Below, in pieces: positions 4,550 to 19,669 of a stretch of DNA of 21,423 bases. Source of the DNA: a virus. Every line of letters starts with the position of its first letter. The stretch's first letter is position 1. The position numbers were made by a program, and so were the translations under genes. The notes under the pieces are model-generated. The model did no database searches. It was not told the origin of the DNA and saw only the letters and a program-made list of their open reading frames with translations. Location of the stretch: IMG/VR virus record IMGVR_UViG_3300025889_001114, positions 1 to 21,423 of that record, one strand, 5' to 3'.

Positions 4550-4568
4550 TTACTTCTCCTTCGTGATT

Positions 4569-4580
4569 AAAGGATCCTTT
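4569..4580. promoter_or_regulatory. 12-bp perfect palindrome in divergent promoter region (candidate operator)
   Basis: AAAGGATCCTTT is a perfect dyad lying between the divergent genes. It falls at about -44 to -33 relative to the predicted rightward start site and within the first 25 nt of the predicted leftward transcript, so a dimeric regulator bound here could affect both directions. No second copy was noticed in the window. The operator role is inferred; it also forms part of a possible RNA hairpin in the leftward leader. Confidence 0.4.
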
Positions 4581-4588
4581 CGGTCCTT
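4570..4588 (-). other. 5' leader hairpin with GAAA tetraloop ahead of leftward early operon
   Basis: Read as leftward RNA, AAGGACC-GAAA-GGATCCTT can fold into a 7-bp stem with one bulged A and a GNRA-type GAAA loop. It would sit within a few nt of the predicted transcript 5' end (about 4592) and 8 nt before the Shine-Dalgarno AAGGAG (4556-4561). Such 5'-terminal stem-loops can slow RNase E attack or tune translation. Pairing is visible; the role is inference. Confidence 0.45.
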
Positions 4589-4597
4589 GACATTCCC

Positions 4598-4606
4598 TGA
4601 TATAAT
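4598..4606 (+). promoter_or_regulatory. Extended -10 promoter for the SNF2 helicase gene
   Basis: TGATATAAT is a perfect extended -10 (TGn plus TATAAT). The 17-bp-spaced -35 position (4578-4583, TTTCGG) is poor, as is common for extended -10 promoters. The predicted start near 4613 leaves a leader of roughly 35 nt before the ATG at 4647. A TTGACA at 4587-4592 is only 8 nt from TATAAT and so does not fit as its -35. Confidence 0.6.
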
Positions 4607-4627
4607 TAGATATGTAGGGATCGTCAA
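4599..4627 (-). promoter_or_regulatory. Sigma-70-type promoter for the leftward early operon
   Basis: On the minus strand TTGACG (4622-4627) and TATATC (4599-4604) are separated by exactly 17 bp, matching the sigma-70 consensus at 5/6 and 4/6 positions. Predicted start is near 4592, giving a leader of about 43 nt before the ATG at 4549. Its -10 uses the same base pairs as the rightward -10, so the two promoters would compete for polymerase. Confidence 0.55.
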
Positions 4628-4646
4628 CCACTTTTTTGAAAGAGCC

Positions 4647-6092
4647 ATGACATATCAATTTGAGACGGAGCCGTTCGCCCACCAACGCCAAGCGTTTGAA
4701 GATTCGTGGGCCGCGGACTACTACGCGTTGTTCATGGAAATGGGCACCGGAAAATCGAAGGTGGCTATTGACACCATCGCTGCGCTGTATGAGTCCGGCG
4801 ACGTAAACGCAGCCTTAATCGTGGCTCCGAAGGGCGTTTACGACAACTGGGTAAAGGGGGAGATCCCGGTGCATATGCCGGGTCGGATTGACCGGCTCGT
4901 TGTCCGTTGGATACCCGCGAAAACAAAAAAGTTCGAAGAAGAGCTTGAGGGGCTATCGGATCTTGAGCCTAAACATCTTCGCATGTTCGTGATGAACGTG
5001 GAAGCCCTTTCGACACCTCGTGGAGCCCGCGCTGCGTATGACTTTCTGAAGCGTTATCCTGACAACATCATGGTTGTAGACGAATCCACGACGATAAAAA
5101 ATCGCACCGCGCAGCGCACGAAGAATATCGTGACCCTCGGCACTTACGCCAAGTACCGCCGCATCCTGACTGGGTCGCCCGTCACGAAGAGCCCGCTCGA
5201 TCTCTACAGCCAGTGCCTGTTCCTGTCGGACCGGGCGTTGGGCTTCAAGAGCTACTTCGCGTTCCAGAACCGATACGCCGTCGTGCAACGACGCACGATG
5301 GGCCCCAAGGCTTTCCAAGAAGTTGTGGGCTATCGTCGTCTGGATGAATTGTCGGAGAAGCTCGACCGGTTCAGCAACCGCGTTCTGAAAGAGGACTGTC
5401 TCGACCTGCCGGATAAGGTTTACATCCGCCGGGACGTTCCACTGACGCCGGAACAAAAGCGCCTGTACGACCAGATGAAGAAGCTGGCGCTTGCCATGCT
5501 CGACAATGGCGAGCTAGCGACCACGGCCAGCGTGCTGACGCAGATCATGCGGCTCCAGCAAATCTGCTGCGGCTTCCTGACGCCCGACGACGGCGAGACG
5601 CAGGAGCTACCGCACAACCGCTTGAACGAGTTGATGGACATTGCAGAAGAGGTGCAGGGCAAAGTCATCATCTGGGCTACCTACACTCACGACATCCTTG
5701 AGATCCGTGGTGCGTTGGCCAAGAAGTATGGCGAGGACGCCGTGGCTTGCTACTACGGAGACACACCACAGGACGAGCGGCAGGAGATTGTCGAGAAGTT
5801 TCAAGACCCGGAGAACCCGTTGCGGTTCTTTGTGGGTCAGCCCCGAACGGGCGGTTACGGCATCACTCTAACAGCCGCCAGCACGGTGGTGTACTACTCC
5901 AACAGCTACGATCTAGAGATAAGGCTTCAGTCAGAGGACCGAGCGCATCGCATTGGTCAGAAAAAGTCGGTGACCTATATCGATCTCGTATCGCCCCAGA
6001 CGATTGACGAGAAGATACTGGGCGCGTTGAAGGCCAAGATCGATCTGGCCGGACAGGTATTGGGCGAGGACGCCCGGCAGTGGCTTATCTGA
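4647..6092 (+). CDS. SNF2-family superfamily 2 DNA helicase/translocase
   Basis: DNA-dependent ATPase of 481 residues, the only rightward gene in the window. Motifs in order: Walker A EMGTGKS (31-37), IVAPKGVYDNW (58-68) as motif Ia, Walker B VVDES (143-147, in place of the usual DEAH box), motif III TGSP (175-178), a C-terminal RecA-like lobe from about 335, and motif VI SEDRAHRIGQ (429-438), the SNF2 signature. At 481 residues it is a minimal two-lobe translocase with no obvious accessory DNA-binding domain. Phages often encode such proteins beside AEP primases, so a role in replication fork or D-loop processing is likely, though remodelling of host nucleoprotein cannot be excluded. The ATG at 4647 is chosen because the upstream in-frame ATG (4563) precedes the predicted transcript start. 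The ribosome site is weak (GAAAGAG). Its 3' end overlaps the convergent late gene by 8 nt. Confidence 0.93.
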   Translation: MTYQFETEPFAHQRQAFEDSWAADYYALFMEMGTGKSKVAIDTIAALYESGDVNAALIVAPKGVYDNWVKGEIPVHMPGRIDRLVVRWIPAKTKKFEEELEGLSDLEPKHLRMFVMNVEALSTPRGARAAYDFLKRYPDNIMVVDESTTIKNRTAQRTKNIVTLGTYAKYRRILTGSPVTKSPLDLYSQCLFLSDRALGFKSYFAFQNRYAVVQRRTMGPKAFQEVVGYRRLDELSEKLDRFSNRVLKEDCLDLPDKVYIRRDVPLTPEQKRLYDQMKKLALAMLDNGELATTASVLTQIMRLQQICCGFLTPDDGETQELPHNRLNELMDIAEEVQGKVIIWATYTHDILEIRGALAKKYGEDAVACYYGDTPQDERQEIVEKFQDPENPLRFFVGQPRTGGYGITLTAASTVVYYSNSYDLEIRLQSEDRAHRIGQKKSVTYIDLVSPQTIDEKILGALKAKIDLAGQVLGEDARQWLI

Positions 6093-6885
6093 TAGAGACG
6101 AGACTACCGATACCGCCGTGTACAGCGCCGCCTTGCCGATAGCCGCGGGCCGCGAACGAGGTTACTGCGCCTGAAGGGCTGTATCCGGGGTCCGGAGCAA
6201 AACCCGCCATCATTCCAGCCTCTGTTGAAGGCGTACTCACTCCGGGGGCAGACACGCTGGCCGAGGGGGCGGTCGTTTGACCGGGGTCAGTAACAGAAGA
6301 TACCGCATCGCTAATGGCGTTTGAGATGCTCTGCGTGGCCGCCGTCGTATCGACACCTATTGCACCAAGAGCGGCGTCTACTGCACCGGGTTGACTGGGT
6401 CCAAACGACACCGCGGGTGCACCGGGTGTTCCTATGTTAACGCTCATAGTGCTGGGTACACCGAAGGCGTCAGCAATAGTGGAAATACCTTTGGTTGCTA
6501 CCATCGTAGCTACAGGGCCGAGAGGAGTCGCCAGTAAACCCAGAGCGGGGATGCTAAAATCTATGTTAACCCCTTTAGGCCCGAACTGATCGAAACCTTT
6601 CGTGATGCCCAGCGCGTCCGTGACAAAACCCATAGACGGGCTATAAGCCTCCATCTCTCCCTTCGCGGCATCTACTGCTGCCGCTTCGGCTTCGGCCTCT
6701 GCAACGGTAGCTGGATTGTCTACTGCGGGATCAGTTCCGTGATGCCCACCCGCGCCGCCGTCACCACCGCCATCACCGCCCAGCAAAAGACGCTTGCGGG
6801 CCCAAACATCGCCCGCATCTACACCCGCCGTGGTGTAGATGTCGTTGAAGCCGTCTGCATAGGGGCTTTTACGCTCGTACTTCAT
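6085..6885 (-). CDS. Gly/Ala-rich hypothetical virion protein, last gene of late operon
   Basis: Protein of 266 residues with no domain I recognise. A charged N-terminus is followed by a Gly-rich stretch (36-50), an Ala/Glu helix (61-80), a hydrophobic Pro/Gly/Ala region with scattered Lys (about 94-145, containing SIPALGLLATPLGPVATMVA), a Ser/Thr/Ala/Pro-rich linker and a C-terminal YRQGGAV (249-255) followed by GGIGSLVSIR. The GGxV element recurs in other late proteins here, which together with position supports a structural or ejected protein. The start lies 17 nt inside the acyltransferase gene with GGAGAG as ribosome site. It converges on the SNF2 gene with an 8-nt overlap, and no terminator is visible at the junction. 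Being directly downstream of the acyltransferase, it is one of several possible acylation substrates; unproven. Confidence 0.8.
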   Translation of the reverse strand: MKYERKSPYADGFNDIYTTAGVDAGDVWARKRLLLGGDGGGDGGAGGHHGTDPAVDNPATVAEAEAEAAAVDAAKGEMEAYSPSMGFVTDALGITKGFDQFGPKGVNIDFSIPALGLLATPLGPVATMVATKGISTIADAFGVPSTMSVNIGTPGAPAVSFGPSQPGAVDAALGAIGVDTTAATQSISNAISDAVSSVTDPGQTTAPSASVSAPGVSTPSTEAGMMAGFAPDPGYSPSGAVTSFAARGYRQGGAVHGGIGSLVSIR

Positions 6886-7324
6886 GTTCCGCTCTCCGTG
6901 CAGCCAGCATGTCTTTCACGCCGGTAATATATGTCAGCCGGTCGTTCCTTGCGGCGCGCTTCATAAAAGCACCGTCCTTCATGTAAACATTGATGTAGCG
7001 GTTGGTAAGATCCTTTTGGATCATGCGTCCAAGCTTCAGGACGTTGCCATACGGCGCGATGAAATCAATGATGAACAGTTCCCCACACCAGTGGTCCGTG
7101 AACCAATCTTCGGGTTGCAGCTTCCGCGTCTTCATCAGGTAGCCTTTTGCGGCCTCGGGCGTGAGGAACGCGTGGCTGTACAGACCCTGCGGCTTACCGT
7201 CCTCGTAAAACACCTTCATCTTGCCCGCTTCGATGGCAGGCATAATCAGACGCTCAAGGTCGTGGACGTACCACTTCCTATGAACGTCTGACTGAAGCAT
7301 CAGATGTAGAACGTCGCCGATCAT
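6869..7324 (-). CDS. HlyC/RTX-toxin-activating lysine acyltransferase homologue
   Basis: 151 residues, resembling the toxin-activating acyltransferases (HlyC, CyaC, ApxC) that move a fatty acid from acyl-ACP to internal lysines of RTX toxins. Seen: SDVHRKWYVHDLERLIMPAI (12-31) lines up with HlyC around its catalytic His23 (HRNW...LPAI), placing the His at residue 15; DGKPQGLYSHAFLTPEA (42-58) matches the DNYPVAYCSWANLS region; EDW...LFIIDFIAPYGN (72-94) matches the DW...WFIDWIAPFGD block, placing the catalytic Asp at residue 87. The His-Asp spacing (72) is close to that in HlyC (about 69). It is slightly shorter than HlyC (170). No RTX toxin repeats occur in the window. The ATG overlaps the stop of the 1457-residue virion gene (ATGA), so the two are probably translated together, pointing to a virion protein as substrate. 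Family assignment is strong; activity and target are inferred. Confidence 0.85.
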   Translation of the reverse strand: MIGDVLHLMLQSDVHRKWYVHDLERLIMPAIEAGKMKVFYEDGKPQGLYSHAFLTPEAAKGYLMKTRKLQPEDWFTDHWCGELFIIDFIAPYGNVLKLGRMIQKDLTNRYINVYMKDGAFMKRAARNDRLTYITGVKDMLAARRAEHEVRA

Positions 7325-10300
7325 CCGAGAAGGCCACCAATACCTTGGCTACGGATCATGGATGATGCCGAATCGTTAGGAAAGAGTGCCGCATATCGCT
7401 GCCGTGTCGCTGGGGATGCCGGAGCTTGGGTGGGAGCCGAAGCAACGGACTGAGGTACTGGGGTCGGTGCAGGACGTGGCGGGATAGGCGGCGGCTGTAC
7501 CGCCGCAACCGTGCGGGTGGGAACCGCGGGTGGGCGGACAGAACCTTGTGTGCCGGGGGTTTCAGGTTCAGGAGCGGGCTCTTTTTTAGGCAGCGGCCCA
7601 ACTTCTTCTTCGCCGTACTCCATAACCCCAAGAGGGATGGCGCGTGCTGGGGCAGGAGTGGCCAAACTTATACCGATAATTTTTAGTTTATCTAAAATAA
7701 AATTAAGAGCGCCCGCTTTAGCCTCGTTTGTTCGACCCTTGCGAAGGGCCATTGCAAGAAGCTCCGGATCAAGAAGAATGTTTTCCAAAGCGTCATATTC
7801 CGAAAGGGCTGGTAGCTCTTGCGTGATCTTTCTAAGAAAACGGGAACCCGCTTCGGCTTCAATTAGTCCAGCACCCGTAGCACTGCGGCCCCCCATCATG
7901 CCGCCAACCATAGTACCAAGGCGGGCACCAGCCAAACGGGTATAGAAATCTAGCAAAAGAGGCGCATCCGCAGTGAACACGACATCACCCGCCAGCTTTC
8001 GACCCTCCGCCGCAATCAGAGCACGAAGACCTTGTTGCATGGAATTTAGCTGCGGCTCGCTAATGATTTTATTAGCCACCATCCAGTTACCAAGGGTGTT
8101 AGTGTCGCCTCTCGCATTTGGGATCTTGTCAAAGACCGCGTTATAAACAGCAGAGGGGCTAAAGCCGTCTTCTGAGCCTTTACCTCCGCGTGTAAAGACA
8201 AAATCCATAACAGCTTTTTGTAGTCCGGAACGGGCTTGCTCCAAATCGATTTCGGAAAAATTAATGCGGCCAGAGTATTTCGCTCTACGAGAAGGATCGG
8301 CAGCAGCGTTCAAAATTTCAACTAAGCTATCAAGCTCTTTCATGGGGTTCTTTGAGTTCCATGCAGCTTCTACGGCTTTAGTTGGATTCTCGTGCCCGAT
8401 CAAAGCTTGAAAAGCTTTAGCGTCTTTCACCCGATCATCAAGGCGCTTGATGACTCGATCAGATTTCAGCAAAAAGTCTGCCGTGGAGTCCGCCTCTTCA
8501 ATCATTTTCTGAACAGCGGGGAAGGATTCCAGCAAGTCGCTGTATTTTTCCCGCCATTGCATCAAAGCTAGATCTTGCGCGTCGGCAACCTGTTTTGGTG
8601 ACATCCGACGATCAATCGCCGCTCGGGTGGTAACATCGCGAATAGCCAGACGGAGCATGTTTGACAGAGTTTCGTCTGCGTTACCAATTTGATCTTTAAC
8701 GTCTAGCTCACCCATTTCGATTTCACGGGTAACCTGACGCACGGCTCCGTTCGGGTCCGTGACGGTTTCAAAAACTTCTACCGTGATCGGGTAACCCGTC
8801 TCGTTCAGCCGCTTGACGATCTCATTGTTTACCTCTTGGATCTGGTCAAGACGGATAGAAACAGCGTCGGGCTGACCCGAAAACAACTTAGTGGTCACCA
8901 TCCCCGGATCAACAACGCGTTTTCCGCGAGGGGTGGTTCTCATAATTTCGCCGGGGAAAGCCCTTCGGAGATACTCGTTGAAGGCAAACGACATGTCACG
9001 AGCGGCATCGTAGGCACCTCGCCCGTTGGGCATGCCGTTTAGGTCGTCTAGGGCAGCTTCCGCCATTGCATTAGCATAACGAGCCCATGAGGGATCGCTC
9101 TCAGCAAGACGACGGCCTAAGTTACGCATCTCCGAGTAGATCGACACTATGTTTTGTACCGTTATCGGATCAGATACAACGCCCGAGGCTTGCCTAGCGT
9201 CGGTGGCGCTTCTACGGGCGATGAGTTCTTGCCGCTTTAAGCCTAATAGGCTTGCAGCTATGCGGTCTTCTCCTCCGCGGGCAGCCTTTCTACCCGTCAG
9301 AAGCTTAGATTCCTCTCTTCCCAAAGCCTCGATCAAAGCAGTCGCGGACTGCTCGGACAAGTTCGCTTCGTCAAAAGGTTGGTCACCCATGACCCCGGAG
9401 ACGACCCGATTATACGTCCTGTTATACAAACCTCGTCCGGGTCGTCCTTCGGCTGTATCAAAAGCTTTCCGAAAATTTTGAGTTTCGCTCAGTTCGTCTA
9501 GTTTGTTTACAGAACTAAACCCGATCTGGCTCTTTAGCTCCATAATTCGGTCGTTCAACAGCCCAAATTCTGGAACGCGGGCCCTCAAAACATTCTTTTT
9601 GAGAGGATCTAACTCATCAACTATCGCATCCCATTCTTCAAAAATGTTAGGAACGGGGTTTTCCACCAGATCACCCGTTTCGGGATCCGCGCGATAGAAC
9701 TTATCCAGAACCTGCTTCTGATCTACTTGCCCCCACGCACGTCTTTCCAATGCGCGGAAAAGCTTCTCCTGATCTTTCACCGTGTTGGAGAGCGCCTCTC
9801 CAAGAGCTCGTCGGGCTTTTTCCCCGCCTTCCGGATAAATCTGTCGGATGGCGTCTATGTTTTTCTGGACAGCGTCTTCCATTCGTTTGGCGATAAGAAG
9901 AGAAATGCGGTCCTGCATCATCTCTCCAGCCATTTTTACAAGCTCAGTATCACCGGTTCCACGCAGGGCGTAAATGAGGCCCCGTTGAATTTCCTGACTT
10001 TTGTTAAAGGAAGCGTCTCGGGCTTGTTCTAATGCGCCCCTTTGACCGGAGCGGCCCATAACGGCGTTTTCCAACTGCGTAAGCGCCGCACTATCCATGT
10101 ACTGGCTAGAAAATATGGGGAGATTATCTCCCCCCTCGGGGGTTCTGCTGCCAAATGCGTCCAGTATCTCTTTTTTCAAAGTGTAGTTTACGACGTTTCC
10201 TTTGCCGTCAGTAACCGGATCCACCAAATAGGCTTCTAGGTTGGCTAAGATCGTATCGGGATCTTCTTGGTTGGCTTGAAGGACATCAAAAATGTCATCT

Positions 10301-11694
10301 ATAGCCCGACGACGCGCTCGGTTTTTAATTCCGAAAAGGTCTCTGCCTTCTCCGCGAGCTTTCCCTTCAGCCATGAGGCGTCTTTTTTCGCCCACCATAG
10401 AAAACAGGCGGGGCATGTACTTTAGAATTGACAGAGAAGGAGCCAAAGAACCGATGGTTTCCGCCCCAAGCCGCGCCCCTTCGGATCTAGGGGCATACCC
10501 TTCCGACATGTAAACAAGACCGCCCGTGGCCGGAGCCGCCGCGGCCTCCACACCGAGTGTTACCCCTTTTCCGACCGGGCCCATCTGTCGAAAAGATTGG
10601 CCCCCACCAACCAAAGCGTTTTCAACGTAGTCAATTCCACGAATAGCATTACGCGTGAAGAAGCCCATATCCGGAACTTCCTTAGATGCACGAGCCGCGG
10701 CTTCTTTTAAGGTTAGTCTTGTTTTATTGAAGGCGGCATCACCCGCTTTATTCGCAGCATCCTCTGCGGCCCTACCCGTAATTCCCCTTCGGGCACTTTC
10801 CTCAAGGCTTTTGTTTCGTGCCGCGGTCCGCGCTGCATCCGCAGCTTTTTCCGCCTCTGTAAATATCTGATTGCGGCGCTGCTCCATTTGAATGCGATTT
10901 GGACGGCCAGCTAATTTGCCAGACAAGTACCTCTGAATCAGGGGATTCTCGGCTTGTTCTGCCGTGATGACCGTTGCTTGGTTGGCCACCGGTAAATTTC
11001 TTATGTTATAAGCACTGTTTAAGACCGCACGTGGAGCCAAATACGGCATTAGTATGAAGGGGCCTACGTTTCCAGCCGACTCGAAGCTTCGGAACGCTCT
11101 CTCAGCAGACGGGGTCAAAAGCGCTCTTTCGGGATTTTCCGCTACTGCATCAGCTAGCTTCTGGCCCAAGAAAGAGTCCGCAAGAATGGAGCCAACGACA
11201 AAACCCGTAAAACCCGCAACAGGTTTTGATAAAACGCCAAACGGCGCGAGGGGACCGGGGAGAGGAACATAGGCAGGAGCCGCCGCCGCTGCAAGTTTTG
11301 CTCCCGCTACACCTCCGGCAAAAGTGGTTCCACCTCTTGTAATACCCCGTAGAAAAGCGTCTACCTCCGTAGGGGCCCCGTCTTCGCCCAGAGATTTCAA
11401 TCCGGAAAAGAGTTGAATGATCTGGTTGTCGGACAAGCCCTTACCATAAAGTTTCGAAGCCTGCTCCCCCGGCAACATCCTTATGATATCAGCCCGGCCT
11501 GAAATAACGTCCTCGTACCCGGCCTTACCTTCATAGCGAGGGTCCGAGTTGAGTTCATTGAGAACCAGTTTTGCAACCCCTTGCTCTACGTCAGACCCGT
11601 AGATTTCATACAAGCGGTTTAGCCCCTCGGGGGTAAACTCAACGGCCTTAAAAGGATTAGGCGTGGTGTCCTCGGCTACAGTGGTATCGGTCAT
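7321..11694 (-). CDS. Very large internal virion/ejection-type protein (1457 residues)
   Basis: No catalytic domain recognised. Length, high helix content, many charged Ala/Glu/Arg/Lys-rich segments and position suggest an internal virion or DNA-ejection protein comparable in role, not sequence, to the large core proteins of podoviruses. Residues 121-175 are Gly/Ala/Pro-rich and hydrophobic (GGTTFAGGVAGAKLAAAAAP, then FTGFVVGSILA), a candidate membrane-inserting stretch. The C-terminus has a Pro-rich linker (about 1365-1430, with PPPIPPRPAPTPVP) followed by RYAALFPND and a final GIGGLLG, which looks like a small docking or end motif. Base composition is lower in G+C than the neighbouring 13.5-17.3 kb genes (sampled 60-nt rows give 45-50% against about 67%). 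Starts are coupled: ATGA with the gene upstream and with the acyltransferase downstream. A GAGGGT ribosome site precedes the ATG. Function inferred. Confidence 0.85.
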   Translation of the reverse strand: MTDTTVAEDTTPNPFKAVEFTPEGLNRLYEIYGSDVEQGVAKLVLNELNSDPRYEGKAGYEDVISGRADIIRMLPGEQASKLYGKGLSDNQIIQLFSGLKSLGEDGAPTEVDAFLRGITRGGTTFAGGVAGAKLAAAAAPAYVPLPGPLAPFGVLSKPVAGFTGFVVGSILADSFLGQKLADAVAENPERALLTPSAERAFRSFESAGNVGPFILMPYLAPRAVLNSAYNIRNLPVANQATVITAEQAENPLIQRYLSGKLAGRPNRIQMEQRRNQIFTEAEKAADAARTAARNKSLEESARRGITGRAAEDAANKAGDAAFNKTRLTLKEAAARASKEVPDMGFFTRNAIRGIDYVENALVGGGQSFRQMGPVGKGVTLGVEAAAAPATGGLVYMSEGYAPRSEGARLGAETIGSLAPSLSILKYMPRLFSMVGEKRRLMAEGKARGEGRDLFGIKNRARRRAIDDIFDVLQANQEDPDTILANLEAYLVDPVTDGKGNVVNYTLKKEILDAFGSRTPEGGDNLPIFSSQYMDSAALTQLENAVMGRSGQRGALEQARDASFNKSQEIQRGLIYALRGTGDTELVKMAGEMMQDRISLLIAKRMEDAVQKNIDAIRQIYPEGGEKARRALGEALSNTVKDQEKLFRALERRAWGQVDQKQVLDKFYRADPETGDLVENPVPNIFEEWDAIVDELDPLKKNVLRARVPEFGLLNDRIMELKSQIGFSSVNKLDELSETQNFRKAFDTAEGRPGRGLYNRTYNRVVSGVMGDQPFDEANLSEQSATALIEALGREESKLLTGRKAARGGEDRIAASLLGLKRQELIARRSATDARQASGVVSDPITVQNIVSIYSEMRNLGRRLAESDPSWARYANAMAEAALDDLNGMPNGRGAYDAARDMSFAFNEYLRRAFPGEIMRTTPRGKRVVDPGMVTTKLFSGQPDAVSIRLDQIQEVNNEIVKRLNETGYPITVEVFETVTDPNGAVRQVTREIEMGELDVKDQIGNADETLSNMLRLAIRDVTTRAAIDRRMSPKQVADAQDLALMQWREKYSDLLESFPAVQKMIEEADSTADFLLKSDRVIKRLDDRVKDAKAFQALIGHENPTKAVEAAWNSKNPMKELDSLVEILNAAADPSRRAKYSGRINFSEIDLEQARSGLQKAVMDFVFTRGGKGSEDGFSPSAVYNAVFDKIPNARGDTNTLGNWMVANKIISEPQLNSMQQGLRALIAAEGRKLAGDVVFTADAPLLLDFYTRLAGARLGTMVGGMMGGRSATGAGLIEAEAGSRFLRKITQELPALSEYDALENILLDPELLAMALRKGRTNEAKAGALNFILDKLKIIGISLATPAPARAIPLGVMEYGEEEVGPLPKKEPAPEPETPGTQGSVRPPAVPTRTVAAVQPPPIPPRPAPTPVPQSVASAPTQAPASPATRQRYAALFPNDSASSMIRSQGIGGLLG

Positions 11695-13523: not shown

Positions 13524-14519
13524 TTAGGCCATTCCTTGCATCTGCGGTTCTGCGCCACCGGCCAGCGTCATAACGCCACCTGCCATGTCACCCTGAACCG
13601 GAGTCGTCATCTCCTGTGCGGCTAGTGCGCCTACGCCAGCATCAACATTATCGCCCGGGGCCATCGTTTCTTCAACCAGAGAAAGCTGAACGATAGGCTG
13701 GACAAGAGCCAAAACCGACTCCGGCGTCTGCATGGCGTCTTCCTCGCCCACCAGCATGGCAAGCTCGGAACGGCGCTCTTCAACCGTGGCCGTATCGCCA
13801 CGGACCATGTTCATCATCTCTTCGTAGCTTTGGGCGGTTTCCGGATCGCCGTAGGACTGTGCCTCAGACGCAATCATCTGCTGGACTTCCGGTCCACCAC
13901 TAGCCTGCATCGCGCCCATCACAACTTCTTGCTCTGGCGGCGTCATCGCGGCAGCCGCCGCGGGCATCTGCTGGGCCATCGAGGCCATGTCAGAAGGCAT
14001 TACCATACCGCCGTCAGCGTATCCCGAACCCTCGTCCCTTACCTCCGGAGGATAATAGGACTCGCCTTGTGGCGGCATCATGTCTTGAAAGAACTGCTGG
14101 TCCAGACGGATAGGCGGAACGTATTCGGGGCGCTGATCCGTGGGCCGTGGGCCGTATACCGTCTCTCCTACCATAGGGCCCAAAATCTGCGGAGGTAGAT
14201 AATCGTAACCTTCCGGTCCCGGCCCGTCCGGAGACATAGTAGAAGGCCCCGTCGCGCCTTCCTGCATCATCATACGCTGTGCGTCCGCAATCTGAGCAAT
14301 TTCTTCCCGAGTGGGGGACCGGCCATACTGATCCATGAACGCAGCAATCGAAGCTTGCAGCGCAGCATTATCACTCAGCGTCGGCATAAGGCCCTGATTC
14401 ATCAGGATATCCATCTGCGTCGGCTTAAGGCCCCGATCCCTCAGAATATCCCCCTGCTGCATCTTAACGTCCCCGCCATTACGAAACATCTGTCGATCCA
14501 TTACGCCGCGGTTCATCAT
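13524..14519 (-). CDS. Met/Gln/Pro-rich hypothetical virion protein with GGxV motifs
   Basis: Protein of 331 residues, low complexity, very rich in Met, Gln, Pro and Ala. N-terminus MMNRGVMDRQMFRNGGDV is of a kind I associate with short conserved leaders in marine phage virion proteins. An imperfect repeat follows (ILRDRGLKPTQMD at 25-37 and ILMNQGLMPTLSD at 38-50). Further on are YADGGMV (167-173) and a C-terminal AGGVMTLAGGAE. No transmembrane helix or enzyme motif is visible; the acidic, unstructured character suggests a scaffold-like, internal or linker protein. The start is a double ATG overlapping the upstream stop (ATGATGA arrangement), so either Met could be used. Its stop abuts the ATG of the 610-residue gene. 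Function unknown. Confidence 0.82.
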   Translation of the reverse strand: MMNRGVMDRQMFRNGGDVKMQQGDILRDRGLKPTQMDILMNQGLMPTLSDNAALQASIAAFMDQYGRSPTREEIAQIADAQRMMMQEGATGPSTMSPDGPGPEGYDYLPPQILGPMVGETVYGPRPTDQRPEYVPPIRLDQQFFQDMMPPQGESYYPPEVRDEGSGYADGGMVMPSDMASMAQQMPAAAAAMTPPEQEVVMGAMQASGGPEVQQMIASEAQSYGDPETAQSYEEMMNMVRGDTATVEERRSELAMLVGEEDAMQTPESVLALVQPIVQLSLVEETMAPGDNVDAGVGALAAQEMTTPVQGDMAGGVMTLAGGAEPQMQGMA

Positions 14520-15511
14520 CCGAATAGTCCTGATTTAGAGGCACCCGCCGCCGCGCTAAGACCGGCGATGCCAAGACCCAAGAACTGCTGGGCCGGGGAC
14601 ACCGACGGAGAAGCTGCCGCCGAGATGGTCTGTTGAGTAGAAGGAGCGCCCTTATAGATGTCCGACAGGAACGAAACGCGCTGGTAAGGTTCGTACAACT
14701 GGGCCAATTCGCTCTGACGCTGCGCTTCAAGCTCGGCCTGCTGCTGGGCTTGCTGACGCGCACCCATTTCGTAGACCGCCTGCTGCTCGCGCAGAAGACG
14801 CTCGGAGAGCGTCTCGCCAAGGGCGGACTGTCGCAGGCCGAGCGTTCCAAGCGCCTCGCCGGTCTGAAGTCCCAAAGTTCCAAGCTGCTGACCGGCCTGC
14901 AAGCCAAGAGATCCGATCTGCTGACCGGCCTGCTGACGACGAAGCAGTTCATTCTGTGCCGCCTGCTGGGCCTGAAGGAAGTTCTGCGCCTGCGCCTGTG
15001 CAAGGGCCGCGGCGCGATTACGGTTGATCTCGGCCTCTGAAATGGCCGCACGGCCCCCGCCATACGCACCAGCGCCCGCGGCTTGCAGGCCCACCTGCGA
15101 TGCCTGAATGTTGTAGGCCCGGTTGATCTCGTCCTGAACCGCCTGCTGATAGGGGTTCATGTAGCCCTGAATCATCTCGCCGGTAATCGGACCAGCGCCC
15201 GCGGCCAACATGCCTTGGCCCGTGGCTACGCCGGGCTGAATGTAATCAATGGCCTGCTGCTGTGCGCCCATGATCGGGGCATAGCCCTCGCCCATCGTAA
15301 GGCCCGCTTCTTCCAGATACGGACGATACGCACCGATACCAGCCTCACTAAGACCAAAAGCGGCCTCCTGAAGACCAGATGGAGCCGCTACCTGCTGGGT
15401 CGGCAGGGTGATAGGCTGATCTGCCAGATCCTTGGCAGACTGTAGAAGCCCCAGCTTGAGGGCTTCAATTTCCGGGGCTTCACGTTGAATTATTTCTTGT
15501 GTTTCAGCCAT
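14516..15511 (-). CDS. Gln/Ala-rich internal virion (ejection-type) protein
   Basis: Protein of 331 residues. The central block YMNPYQQAVQDEINR (117-131) followed by QASQVGLQAAGAGAYGGGRAAISEAE (136-161) is characteristic, to my knowledge, of small internal or DNA-injection proteins encoded beside nozzle genes in many aquatic phages. Next comes a long Gln/Ala helix (167-195), three tandem 11-residue repeats (195-227), another Gln-rich coiled-coil-like region (240-272), and the motif FLSDIYKGAPSTQ (281-293) near the end. The C-terminus is Gly/Ala-rich and ends SGLFG. No enzymatic motif. A 1-nt TAATG overlap links it to the 601-residue gene, and its own stop overlaps the next start. Probably ejected with the DNA or lining the tail; inference from composition and context. 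Confidence 0.83.
   Translation of the reverse strand: MAETQEIIQREAPEIEALKLGLLQSAKDLADQPITLPTQQVAAPSGLQEAAFGLSEAGIGAYRPYLEEAGLTMGEGYAPIMGAQQQAIDYIQPGVATGQGMLAAGAGPITGEMIQGYMNPYQQAVQDEINRAYNIQASQVGLQAAGAGAYGGGRAAISEAEINRNRAAALAQAQAQNFLQAQQAAQNELLRRQQAGQQIGSLGLQAGQQLGTLGLQTGEALGTLGLRQSALGETLSERLLREQQAVYEMGARQQAQQQAELEAQRQSELAQLYEPYQRVSFLSDIYKGAPSTQQTISAAASPSVSPAQQFLGLGIAGLSAAAGASKSGLFG
14831..14929 (-). repeat. Three tandem 33-nt / 11-residue repeats inside the Gln/Ala-rich protein
   Basis: Residues 195-227 of the host protein read AGQQIGSLGLQ, AGQQLGTLGLQ, TGEALGTLGLR. The first two are also repeated at DNA level: CTGCTGACCGGCCTGC occurs on the plus strand at 14885-14900 and again at 14918-14933, exactly 33 nt apart. 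The 11-residue period with alternating Gly/Leu and Gln suggests hendecad-type helical packing. This is a site where repeat number could vary between related phages. Confidence 0.85.
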
Positions 15512-17316
15512 TACGCCATCGCCCTTCCGCGCCGCTCAAGGCCACGCATGATACCATACATGTTGTTGATACCGCGATTTAGATCACCGTTACCCGCGCC
15601 CTTGACGGCATTCGTTGTGAATACAAATTCGCCCGGCATTAGCAGGGCACGAACGCTGTCTTCGTTCGGGGTGCCTTCATAAGGCATGATGCCGCCAGTT
15701 CGGCGCGGGTAAACTTCTCCACCTTCTGCCGCACGCATCGGGCCAAACGGATTCTGTAGGCGTTCACGCTGCTGGCGCAGATACTCCTGAAGGCTTGCAA
15801 CCTGCGGGGATTCTGGGAGCCCGTAAGCGCTGGCGACCGTGGTCGGGCCGGTAGCCGAAGTCGGCGTGATGGCCGAACCGGGAAGCGTGTACTTCGTGCC
15901 GCCACCAGCCACGTCGGCGGCCAGAAGTTGTGCGCCGGTCGGGCCGCTCTTCAGGCCAAGAGGGGATTTCTCTTCTTCCGTGGGTTCCGGTGTGTCGAAG
16001 AAACCCAAGGCCGCAGCGCCTGCGGTTCCCGCAGCGGCGAGAGGACCGTAGGTTCGGAAAAAGCCGGGGCTCATTTCGGATTGAACTTTTTTAAGAGCCA
16101 GATCCGGACTAACCCCTTTTTCAAGTAACTTGGCATATTCAGGGGTTTTTACTACGTCTGTTGACGTTGGCCCGGACGGGAAGAACGTATCACCTAGCGT
16201 GGTCAGGGGTTCGTTGACCAGTCTCGTGCCATAATCCTGAACGGCAGCCACAGAGCGGTCAAAGAAATTCGAATCCATCGCCGCACCCGTGTAAATTGGT
16301 TCGCCACCGGGCATACCGGAAGAAAACTTACTGACGTTGATTGGGGGCGTGGGGCCAAAAACTTCGGCCATATTAGGTTGGTATGTACCAATCTGCATCC
16401 CGGGAACGCTAGGAGCCGTTGCCGGGGCAACTGCCACCTGAACAGGCTGGGGCGTTCCCGCAGCAGCAATGGTCTGATCCACCATACTAGGCGGCGTGGC
16501 GGCAATAGTCGGATTGACCACACTGGGCTGCGTGGCGGCACCAAGCTGCTCTGCTGTCGGAGCACTAAACACCGACCCACGCTCAAAGAACGTGTTGGTG
16601 TCCAGCGTCTGACCAACGCGAGCACCAACGGTGTCAAGGTAGCTTCCGGCGTCCATAGCGCGGGATACGTTTTCTCCGAAGGAGCTTCCAGCCGGGCCAC
16701 CAAAGCCCGCGGTTACCGCACCGATACCGCCAGAGATCGCAGCACTGATTGCAGCGTCCTTCAAACTACCACCGTTAATCAGGGTGGCGATGCCCGAACC
16801 AAGCGCCGCGCCCCAAACCGGGCCAAGAACCGCCGTACCAATGATGGGCAGAATAATCGGAGCGGCCTTCTTGAGAACCTTGCCGACGCCCTTAACAACC
16901 TTCTTGACGCCCTTAAAAATCTTGGAAAGGAAGCCAAACTCCATAAGGCCCGTTTCCGGGTTAATCGAGTTAGCCGAAGCACCCACAACATACTGTTCCG
17001 GGTTCTCAATACCCATCTCGCGCAGATGACCAAAGATGGAGTCGCGCAGTTCAGGGTTATTTTCAATAAGCGGGGCAGGAACAACAATCTCACCCGGAGC
17101 CAGATGGGCTACAAACTGGTCGCCGCCGCGGCCATACTTGGCCATGCGGGCGGCCTGCTCCTGAAACTCTGCAATACCGCCGGACTCACCGTAGGTCTTT
17201 CGGGCCTCCTGACGGGCAAGCTCATCATAATCCTCATCGGAAATGATGAAATCGGCAATACCCCCGTCGGGGATGATTACCTCTTCTAGTTCTTGTTCTG
17301 CCGGTAACGCCATCAT
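15511..17316 (-). CDS. Putative membrane-active virion protein with Lys-rich amphipathic helix
   Basis: Protein of 601 residues, no named domain recognised. After an acidic N-terminus comes a small motif YGRGGDQFVAHLAPGEIVVP (61-80) that recurs in shorter form near the end (MPGEFVFTTNAV, 560-571). Residues 128-152 form a strongly cationic amphipathic segment with eight Lys (SKIFKGVKKVVKGVGKVLKK at its core) running directly into a hydrophobic stretch (153-180: IILPIIGTAVLGPVWGAALG) and a second Ala/Gly one (187-208), reminiscent of membrane-disrupting peptides. The rest is a long Pro/Ala/Thr/Val-rich linker, then AAEGGEV (529-535). Context, upstream of other ejection-type genes, suggests a protein that inserts into or crosses the host envelope. 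Double ATG start overlaps the upstream stop; GGAGCAGG is the ribosome site. Function inferred. Confidence 0.83.
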   Translation of the reverse strand: MMALPAEQELEEVIIPDGGIADFIISDEDYDELARQEARKTYGESGGIAEFQEQAARMAKYGRGGDQFVAHLAPGEIVVPAPLIENNPELRDSIFGHLREMGIENPEQYVVGASANSINPETGLMEFGFLSKIFKGVKKVVKGVGKVLKKAAPIILPIIGTAVLGPVWGAALGSGIATLINGGSLKDAAISAAISGGIGAVTAGFGGPAGSSFGENVSRAMDAGSYLDTVGARVGQTLDTNTFFERGSVFSAPTAEQLGAATQPSVVNPTIAATPPSMVDQTIAAAGTPQPVQVAVAPATAPSVPGMQIGTYQPNMAEVFGPTPPINVSKFSSGMPGGEPIYTGAAMDSNFFDRSVAAVQDYGTRLVNEPLTTLGDTFFPSGPTSTDVVKTPEYAKLLEKGVSPDLALKKVQSEMSPGFFRTYGPLAAAGTAGAAALGFFDTPEPTEEEKSPLGLKSGPTGAQLLAADVAGGGTKYTLPGSAITPTSATGPTTVASAYGLPESPQVASLQEYLRQQRERLQNPFGPMRAAEGGEVYPRRTGGIMPYEGTPNEDSVRALLMPGEFVFTTNAVKGAGNGDLNRGINNMYGIMRGLERRGRAMA

Positions 17317-17555: not shown

Positions 17556-17852
17556 CTATGGGGTCAATACTGCAACAGAACCCACCGCGCCGGTGCCGCT
17601 GGATCCCGCCACATGCGGGTTAGAAAGCCTAGAAATCTTAACAAAACCATCCACTTCGAACAGAGCGCCCTGCTCCAAGCCTACATCGTTCGTCGGAAGC
17701 GCCGTAAACGTGCCCACGGTAGCCCGCATCTCACCCGGCTGCTGCTCTTGGATAATGTACGTCGTTAACAAACGCACCATATCCGAGAAATATGTGCTGT
17801 TATACGTGTCCGGCGGGACCGCAAAGCGAGGTGGGACAAGACCGCGGGGCAT
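17556..17852 (-). CDS. Small hypothetical virion protein, 98 residues
   Basis: No domain recognised. N-terminus is Pro-rich (PRGLVPPRFAVPPDTYN), followed by one helix (YFSDMVRLLTTYIIQEQQ, about 21-38) and then beta-type segments (GTFTALPTN, ALFEVDGFVKISRL) with a Ser/Gly/Ala tail. The layout (helix then small beta domain) fits a minor head-tail or tail component. Its ATG overlaps the stop of the gp10-like gene by one base (TGATG), so it is translationally coupled to it, and the conserved pairing of a small protein with the stabilisation protein is suggestive. Function unknown. Confidence 0.78.
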   Translation of the reverse strand: MPRGLVPPRFAVPPDTYNSTYFSDMVRLLTTYIIQEQQPGEMRATVGTFTALPTNDVGLEQGALFEVDGFVKISRLSNPHVAGSSGTGAVGSVAVLTP

Positions 17853-19669
17853 CAGCGTGCTCCATCCGGTCGAACATCAAGCCGTGGCGAACCTAGACGC
17901 CATGCGACACCGAGCCCGTCGCTCTCGACGCGGAGACCAAAGGAGCGGCCTCGGGCTCGGATATTGTTTTGCGTTGCAGATTCCCCCACGGTGGTAGCCG
18001 TAGAGCTTGTGTAACCCGTACCGGGGAACCGTTCTGTCTTAATCGTAAAGGTCGCCTGCGGCAGAGCCATGTCGCTCGAATTAGCAAAGCTGATGTCAGG
18101 TATCAAACGCCGGGCAAATACGAATTTATCACCTTCCCCTATGTCTACGGGGCTAGACTCAATATATGCGGTAAAGGCCGACCCGTCGTCATCTGTACCT
18201 ATTTCGTGGTTGTAGAGATAGCCGTTGTTGAAGCCCGCAACAGGGTACTCTTTCAATCCTCGATCCAACCAACAATCACGGCCCAGATTACCGAAGTACC
18301 AGATGTTCTGTTCGTAATTGAAGGTGACGTACTTGTCGTTGTCGTCTGAGCTTGCAGACGGATAAAACCACGTGATTTCACCAAAAGAAGTGTTGGCGCA
18401 GGCAAACACCTTTTCAGCCTGCGTATCGTTAAAGTCGCGGAACACCGTGTCGCGGACCGTACACGGCAGCGCTTTAACCTGACCATCGTAGAGATAGAAC
18501 CGATTGCGGCCCATCCAGAATACCGCGTCGTTAAGCGCAACCGCGGCATTCGGACCAATAATGGTGGTGCCCGCACTGATCTGGGTCAGCCCAAAGGTAA
18601 ACGGTGCGCCAATAAACTGCATCGAATGCACAGATGAGTCCGTGATGATGACAATCTCACGTCGTGTCTCAATGGCCTGAACAATCTCAGTGCCACTGCC
18701 CACGATCAAGTCACCCGCTGTATTCTCCGCCGTCGCCGCCCAATCTGTGGCGTTTTCCTGATCGCTAAAGCGGATCAAGAGCTTGTCTTGCACAGAGCTA
18801 CCCTCGGGGTTACAGCCGAAAGCGACGACATGACGGTCACGGTCAGATACCAGTACCTGACGAGCCACCGTCGGTGCCGAAGACCCCAAGCTGGAAAGGG
18901 TTACCGCACGAGCCGAAAAACCGCCGGTGTAATCCCAGTAGTAAACACCTGCGTCTCGGATATTGAAGACGAGATCCTCGCCGAAGTTGTCCTGCTTCCA
19001 GATACGGATAGAGCCGCCACCGGCTACCGTGGTAGCTGCCGAGCCCCACGTGCCACGGCTCCATGTTCCTGCACCCCAACCTGTACCGGGGACCACGGTG
19101 TCCAAGCCCACGTTAATCTGGTAAGCCGCAACTACCGCACCGCCGCCATTTCCGGTGTCCGAACCGTCCGCGGTCACAGAAACCGTAATCGTATAGGTGT
19201 TGTCGTTTGGAACCGTCTGGATCTCGTATTCCTGATTAAGGATCTCCGCCGTCACATTGCCGCCAAGGCTCACGGCGTCACTAAATGTAACGTAATCGCC
19301 AGCGATGGCCCCGTGTGCCGCATCCGTAACGGTTATGGTCGAGGAACTGGCGGTGGCGGAGAAGGTAGCGGCATTCGTTGTTGTGGAACGAAGGGGCGTG
19401 ATGTCGTTATACCCAAAGCCCTCTTCGACATAAAACTTCTTGTTGGTGCCGACGCCCATGAGCTCATTGCCATCTCCGGCACGCCAAGCGTGTAGAGAGC
19501 GGGGCGTTCCAACAATGGTATTGCTGCTGTATTTCTGCCAGCCGCCAATCTTTTCTGGGAACCCGAACCGGAATCGCACCTTGTCACAGTCGTTCCACCC
19601 GCCCTCGTTAGAATAGGCAGTGGTTTCTGTGTTCACACCCGGCTGAAACTGGAGCTTCGTCAGGGTCAT
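17852..19669 (-). CDS. Packaged-DNA stabilisation/tail nozzle protein, P22 gp10-like
   Basis: Structural protein of 605 residues, probably part of the tail hub that closes the portal after DNA packaging. The N-terminus reads LQFQPGVNTETTAYSNEGGW, then DKVRFRFGFPEKIGGWQKY (29-47), a signature I associate with the P22 gp10/phage stabilisation family found in many podovirus-type phages. An Ig-like or beta insertion rich in Thr/Ser/Gly lies at about 97-180 (SATASSSTITVTDAAHGAIAG region), then a beta-propeller-like series of short strands with Trp/Gly turns (for example FWMGRNRFYLYDGQVKALPC, and DKYVTFNYEQNIWYFG), and a C-terminal beta region. Length is in the range of such proteins (P22 gp10 is 472 residues; this one has the insertion). 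Spacing to the upstream gene is 8 nt. Family call by recognition, not by search. Confidence 0.78.
   Translation of the reverse strand: MTLTKLQFQPGVNTETTAYSNEGGWNDCDKVRFRFGFPEKIGGWQKYSSNTIVGTPRSLHAWRAGDGNELMGVGTNKKFYVEEGFGYNDITPLRSTTTNAATFSATASSSTITVTDAAHGAIAGDYVTFSDAVSLGGNVTAEILNQEYEIQTVPNDNTYTITVSVTADGSDTGNGGGAVVAAYQINVGLDTVVPGTGWGAGTWSRGTWGSAATTVAGGGSIRIWKQDNFGEDLVFNIRDAGVYYWDYTGGFSARAVTLSSLGSSAPTVARQVLVSDRDRHVVAFGCNPEGSSVQDKLLIRFSDQENATDWAATAENTAGDLIVGSGTEIVQAIETRREIVIITDSSVHSMQFIGAPFTFGLTQISAGTTIIGPNAAVALNDAVFWMGRNRFYLYDGQVKALPCTVRDTVFRDFNDTQAEKVFACANTSFGEITWFYPSASSDDNDKYVTFNYEQNIWYFGNLGRDCWLDRGLKEYPVAGFNNGYLYNHEIGTDDDGSAFTAYIESSPVDIGEGDKFVFARRLIPDISFANSSDMALPQATFTIKTERFPGTGYTSSTATTVGESATQNNIRARGRSFGLRVESDGLGVAWRLGSPRLDVRPDGAR

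What the first reader, a model, noticed from the sequence alone, without database searches (positions are those of the whole stretch)
16777..16935. Cationic amphipathic helix plus hydrophobic hairpin in the 601-residue protein: possible membrane-penetrating and acylation site
Residues 128-152 contain eight Lys with V/I/L/F in an amphipathic spacing, then a hydrophobic stretch 153-180 with central Pro/Gly, then another at 187-208. This looks like a pore- or peptide-type membrane module rather than a normal structural region. It includes a Gly-Lys pair (residues 145-146) next to hydrophobics, the local setting reported for acylated lysines in RTX toxins, so it is a reasonable candidate target of the acyltransferase in the same operon.
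Basis: partly seen in the sequence, partly recalled or inferred. Interest (0 to 1): 0.6.

Follow-up and report, generated by a model that had tools for sequence, protein, structure and literature searches.

The report
Phage DNA-injection protein's membrane-binding segment
A protein of a marine short-tailed phage carries a conserved lysine-rich helix followed by an oily helical hairpin that probably binds host membrane during DNA injection, but relatives show it is not tied to the phage's toxin-type acyltransferase, whose partner is more likely the start of the neighbouring protein.

Summary
Residues 128-152 of the 601-aa protein hold 8 Lys in a strongly amphipathic helix (moment 0.68; shuffles 0.21 +/- 0.10), G145-K146 is present, and hydrophobic stretches follow. 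The module is conserved in all relatives examined that cover it. Its length varies only by -7, +4, +7 or +11 residues, all whole helical turns, so an amphipathic helix is probably under selection. It lies in a DNA-ejection gene block of HTVC023P/CRP-901-like podoviruses, so membrane docking during DNA injection is the best reading. The acylation half fails. Relatives whose records contain no PF02794 (HlyC) gene keep the same helix, and more often keep Gly at 145 (12/16) than relatives with it (11/23). No lysine in five shared proteins tracks the enzyme. Complete phage CRP-235 has the HlyC enzyme but no such protein. The enzyme's constant partner is the next gene downstream (P0011 here), which across otherwise unrelated phages opens with a short leader ending in C/L-F/L-x-G-D-G-G. 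An independent DNA scan found 40 such leaders directly behind HlyC; two others sat behind non-HlyC genes, one T7 gp13-like. I propose the phage enzyme modifies that leader. The modification itself is untested.

The parts
15511..17316 (-). P0001, 601 aa: tape-measure/ejection-type protein carrying the module
   Evidence: ORF and translation; relatives and synteny; C-terminal 70 aa match tape-measure PHROGs
16861..16935 (-). Residues 128-152, Lys-rich amphipathic helix (8 Lys)
   Evidence: length variants only -7/+4/+7/+11
16777..16860 (-). Residues 153-180, first hydrophobic Gly/Pro segment
   Evidence: Kyte-Doolittle 1.96 at 154-172; helices in the models
16693..16758 (-). Residues 187-208, second, weaker hydrophobic Gly/Ala segment
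   Evidence: helix 185-206 in the model
6869..7324 (-). P0012, HlyC-family acyltransferase
   Evidence: PF02794 E 9.8e-22; profile matches ApxC 4whn, invariant His15 and Asp87 aligned
6085..6885 (-). P0011, gene directly downstream of HlyC, 17-nt overlap; proposed enzyme partner
6766..6885 (-). N-terminal leader of P0011, residues 1-40, ending LLLGGDGG
7321..11694 (-). P0002, 1457 aa, DNA-transfer-type protein directly upstream of HlyC
   Evidence: homologue in DSL-LC04 annotated DNA transfer protein
14516..15511 (-). P0005, DNA ejection protein (phrog_4287)
   Evidence: E 2e-7
17852..19669 (-). P0008, stabilisation-type virion protein (phrog_3287)
   Evidence: E 1.9e-74

Best explanation
The segment is a membrane-docking element of an internal ejection protein of a short-tailed phage. 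Before infection the protein would be packed in the virion. After ejection the lysine face of the helix would lie on anionic lipid headgroups and the Gly/Pro-broken hydrophobic hairpin would enter the bilayer, helping build the trans-envelope conduit for DNA. It acts without acylation. The HlyC-type enzyme of the same operon instead serves the protein encoded next to it (P0011), at or through its N-terminal ...GGDGG leader. Shown here: sequence, conservation, helix-phase pattern, synteny, independence from HlyC, HlyC-leader linkage. Inferred: membrane insertion, presence in the virion, chemistry of the enzyme and its acceptor residue.
For: Helix and hairpin are present in every relative examined that covers the region. 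Length variants between fixed anchors are only -7, +4, +7, +11, all within 40 degrees of helical phase; 35 variants in 4 classes. K/(K+R) is 0.91 and acidic residues are nearly absent. 154-172 is TM grade. The gene lies in an ejection block with phrog_4287, phrog_3287 and a DNA-transfer-type protein, conserved in other contigs and in isolate DSL-LC04. Independence: PF02794 is absent from 18 records whose helix is present, while 3 control records were found; K+R 8.3 vs 7.4 (p 0.06) and Gly145 11/23 vs 12/16; no HlyC-linked lysine in five shared proteins. HlyC is present without this protein in CRP-235 (complete) and in contigs G022 to G027. HlyC is followed by a leader gene in nearly all of 70 distinct cases; all 47 local genes with the C-containing leader lie directly behind HlyC; a separate CFGGDGG scan of viral contigs found 40 leaders directly behind HlyC (some contigs shared with the earlier set).
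Against: Both structure models are weak (pTM 0.24 and 0.30; helix pLDDT 39-63), so they do not prove a membrane fold. No PDB or viral structural match at E 0.001. No virion proteomics was found. A basic amphipathic helix could bind DNA or a partner protein instead. The second hydrophobic stretch is marginal.
Confidence: 0.6

Rival explanations
1. One reading: the lysine helix (K146 in Gly-Lys) is the substrate of the operon's HlyC-type acyltransferase, as in RTX toxins.
For: The enzyme is real with its catalytic His/Asp aligned; K146, K149 and K150 are nearly invariant; G-K is present in the window.
Against: Same lysines in relatives without PF02794; Gly145 replaced by A/T/V/K in half of HlyC carriers; HlyC occurs in a complete phage without this protein; the genes are about 8 kb apart, while the enzyme's fixed neighbour is another gene.
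Confidence: 0.07
2. The lysine helix is a DNA-binding or genome-organising element inside the capsid; the hydrophobic part only oligomerises.
For: High positive charge, almost no acidic residues; internal virion proteins contact packaged DNA (general knowledge).
Against: Strict amphipathic phase with a V/I/L/F face and direct fusion to a TM-grade stretch are more typical of membrane surface helices.
Confidence: 0.2
3. The whole segment is an oligomerisation element (Gly-rich helical bundle) of a soluble tape-measure-like protein with no membrane role.
For: C-terminus matches tape-measure PHROGs; second hydrophobic stretch is only 1.42; models show a helical hairpin.
Against: A Lys-rich face with almost no acidic residues would repel itself in a bundle; the gene block is that of short-tailed phages, which have no long tail to measure.
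Confidence: 0.13

Closest known systems
Podovirus ejection proteins (T7 gp14/gp15/gp16, P22 gp7/gp20/gp16; review PMC8954989)
   Same: Same kind of gene block; hydrophobic helices proposed to enter the envelope; neighbour P0005 is phrog_4287 DNA ejection protein
   Different: No sequence or structural match of P0001 itself to T7 or P22 proteins; the Lys-rich amphipathic helix before the hairpin is its own feature
Homologues in Phage DSL-LC04 (annotated tail tape measure), HTVC027P gp82 and 023Pt_psg01
   Same: Shared C-terminal domain; basic helix then hydrophobic segment; profile E 4e-45 to 2e-15
   Different: No HlyC in those records; the HTVC027P and 023Pt proteins are shorter (339 and 459 aa) with the basic helix near the N-terminus
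RTX toxins with HlyC-type acyltransferase
   Same: A genuine HlyC-family enzyme is in the operon
   Different: No RTX family match in P0001, enzyme not adjacent, lysines independent of it
T7 gene 13 / gene 14 pair (PF11090 / PF24072); GNAT beside internal virion proteins in cobaviruses (PMC6775973)
   Same: A small GNAT-like gene directly before an internal virion protein, as HlyC before P0011; a T7 gp13-like gene precedes an MCFGGDGG protein in L252
   Different: HlyC family rather than gp13; no sequence homology between the downstream proteins was found

Membership tests
Podovirus ejection protein | Encoded in the ejection block beside known ejection proteins | tested here: met
   phrog_4287 and phrog_3287 neighbours; conserved order in many contigs and DSL-LC04
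Podovirus ejection protein | Hydrophobic segment able to cross or enter a membrane | tested here: inconclusive
   One TM-grade stretch, best window 1.96; family mean about 1.5-1.6; low-confidence helices
Podovirus ejection protein | Present in virion and leaves it at infection | not testable with these tools
   Needs proteomics of particles before and after ejection
Tail tape measure protein | Match to a tape-measure family over most of its length | tested here: not met
   Only about 70 C-terminal residues of phrog_934, E 1.2e-4
RTX acylated protoxin (as claimed for P0001) | RTX nonapeptide repeats | tested here: not met
   No Pfam match at E 1
RTX acylated protoxin (as claimed for P0001) | Lysine pattern goes with the acyltransferase | tested here: not met
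   Present without PF02794; no linked lysine
HlyC acyltransferase family PF02794 (P0012) | Match above curated cut-off | tested here: met
   77.6 bits vs 25
HlyC acyltransferase family PF02794 (P0012) | Catalytic His and Asp | tested here: met
   Invariant H15 and D87 align with ApxC 4whn; their catalytic role is from general knowledge
HlyC acyltransferase family PF02794 (P0012) | Transfers fatty acyl to lysine of a neighbouring protein | not testable with these tools
   Some downstream proteins contain no lysine at all but one leader cysteine (L150, L166)

The most novel reading that the evidence does not exclude
Phage HlyC-family enzymes are virion-protein modifying enzymes, not toxin activators. 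They act on an N-terminal leader ending in C/L-F/L-x-G-D-G-G of the protein encoded next door, possibly giving an internal virion protein a lipid anchor, and stand where T7 gp13-like GNAT proteins stand in other phages. In Cys-bearing leaders the acceptor could be cysteine rather than lysine.
Probability: 0.4. Interest if true: 0.75.

Novelty: new variant of a known kind. Interest (0 to 1): 0.5.

Why it matters
How short-tailed phages push DNA across the envelope is still argued, and I found no paper describing lipid modification of ejection proteins in the library searched. The module gives a defined peptide for liposome tests. The HlyC-leader pairing gives a specific, testable substrate for phage HlyC genes; a published survey of marine phages listed hlyC as a hemolysin virulence gene (PMC7003362). 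If right, such genes in marine phages are part of virion building and not a sign of virulence.

Tried and rejected
Gly-Lys as acylation site: rejected on the with/without HlyC comparison. Other lysines in five shared proteins as HlyC targets: none was above 80% in carriers and lost in non-carriers; best weak cases lie in P0005 (93% vs 47%). Cys as universal acceptor: not met, as the window's clade has Leu there; Lys as universal acceptor: not met, as several leaders lack Lys. Structure searches of both models gave no significant match. Raw helix lengths measured from the E-F motif showed no phase rule (19% compatible) because the N-terminal cap varies by 1-2 residues; fixed aligned anchors do; both results are given because the choice of anchor was made after seeing the first. 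Papers on phage HlyC as a virion enzyme: none found.

Full report
What is there. The window is a 21.4 kb IMG/VR virus record of a phage related to marine short-tailed phages. The finding's segment is residues 128-180 of the 601-aa ORF at 15511-17316, minus strand. All stated features are present: 8 lysines in 128-152, Gly145-Lys146, and hydrophobic 153-180 and 187-208. Neither the lysine density (0 of 5,000 shuffles) nor the amphipathicity (0 of 20,000) is a chance result. Only 154-172 and windows overlapping it reach TM grade.

Relatives. A scan of viral contigs gave 388 relatives, of which 80 were fetched. The gene order is stabilisation protein (P0008) - P0007 - P0001 - ejection protein (P0005) - DNA-transfer protein (P0002) - [HlyC - P0011-like] - SNF2 helicase. 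Isolates related through P0008 include DSL-LC04, HTVC023P, HTVC027P, CRP-901 and CRP-902. In alignments K146, K149, K150, A152 and P153 are invariant or nearly so; G145 is not.

A helix under selection. Between fixed anchors (K132 to K150) the length differs from the window only by -7, +4, +7 or +11 residues. All four keep the helical face within 40 degrees. There are four length classes, not 35 independent events; about 28% of lengths up to 18 would fit by chance, so four of four is suggestive, not overwhelming. Lengths measured from the E-F motif instead, where the N-terminal cap varies, do not show the rule. Composition is 30% Lys, Lys over Arg 10 to 1, with virtually no acidic residues.

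Structure. The full-length model leaves 115-153 below pLDDT 50 and makes helices 146-180 and 185-206. The segment alone gives one helix over 128-162, a break at the LGP, a second helix and a third after the GG turn, at pLDDT 50-63.

The acyltransferase. P0012 is a true HlyC-family protein whose invariant His and Asp align with ApxC. Eighteen relatives of P0001 lie in records without any PF02794 match, while three control records were found; many records are fragments, but in most of these the P0002-to-SNF2 interval where HlyC would lie is covered. Among non-redundant segments with HlyC (23) and without (13, plus 3 less certain), K+R in the last 25 residues is 8.3 against 7.4 (7.7 in the three), and Gly145 is 11/23 against 12/16. 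On the tree the HlyC label changes at least 4 times by parsimony, of which strongly supported branches force 1. No lysine of five shared proteins tracks HlyC. Conversely, HlyC is present in complete phage CRP-235 and in contigs G022-G027 without P0001; G021 has only the C-terminal domain. Those contigs may be fragments.

The better partner. The gene right behind HlyC starts with a leader ending in C/L-F/L-x-G-D-G-G while the rest of the proteins is largely unrelated. All 47 distinct local genes with the C-containing form are directly behind HlyC; the 11 other matches are not leaders. That set was fetched partly by HlyC itself, so I also scanned viral contigs for the DNA of CFGGDGG: 40 leaders have HlyC directly upstream. 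The other 42 frames are mostly stray frames or cut by contig ends. Real exceptions are L252 and L273, behind a T7 gp13-like gene (phrog_308, E 2.6e-16) and an unassigned gene respectively, and the tandem MCF genes of L181/L269. In contigs without HlyC the slot holds other genes, and no leader was seen. Some HlyC-linked proteins have no lysine and exactly one cysteine, in the leader (L150, L166); the window's clade has lysines and no cysteine. So the acceptor is open.

Verdict. The module is real and probably a membrane-docking part of an ejection protein. The acylation reading is not supported. The lasting lead is the HlyC-leader pair.

Noticed in passing
6085-6885 (P0011) and the gene behind HlyC in L015-L168, L176-L289: N-terminal leader ending C/L-F/L-x-G-D-G-G follows HlyC in nearly every case, on otherwise largely unrelated proteins.
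   Followed up: yes
L252:2944-4187, L273:6100-7391, L181/L269: MCFGGDGG proteins without HlyC: one directly behind a T7 gp13-like gene (phrog_308), one behind an unassigned 150-aa gene, and three tandem MCF-starting genes in L269.
   Followed up: partly
L169:20178-21014 (HTVC023P gp81) versus window P0005: The HTVC023P ejection protein homologue starts MSFIFGGGGGG behind a small gene (gp80); the window homologue lacks that leader.
   Followed up: partly
P0002 and P0011 C-termini (about 7321 and 6085) and relatives: Both end in a similar tail, QGIGGL / GGIGSL, also seen in P0011-like proteins of other contigs.
   Followed up: no
L150, L166: HlyC-linked downstream proteins of 364 and 329 aa with no lysine at all and a single cysteine in the leader.
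   Followed up: partly
L055, L062, L069, L078 between the P0002 homologue and the SNF2 gene: In contigs without HlyC the slot holds a small gene resembling an M15-type peptidase (by eye, not scanned); other contigs hold unrelated genes.
   Followed up: no
Window 4563-6092 (+): SNF2-type helicase facing the structural operon, in the same place across the group.
   Followed up: no
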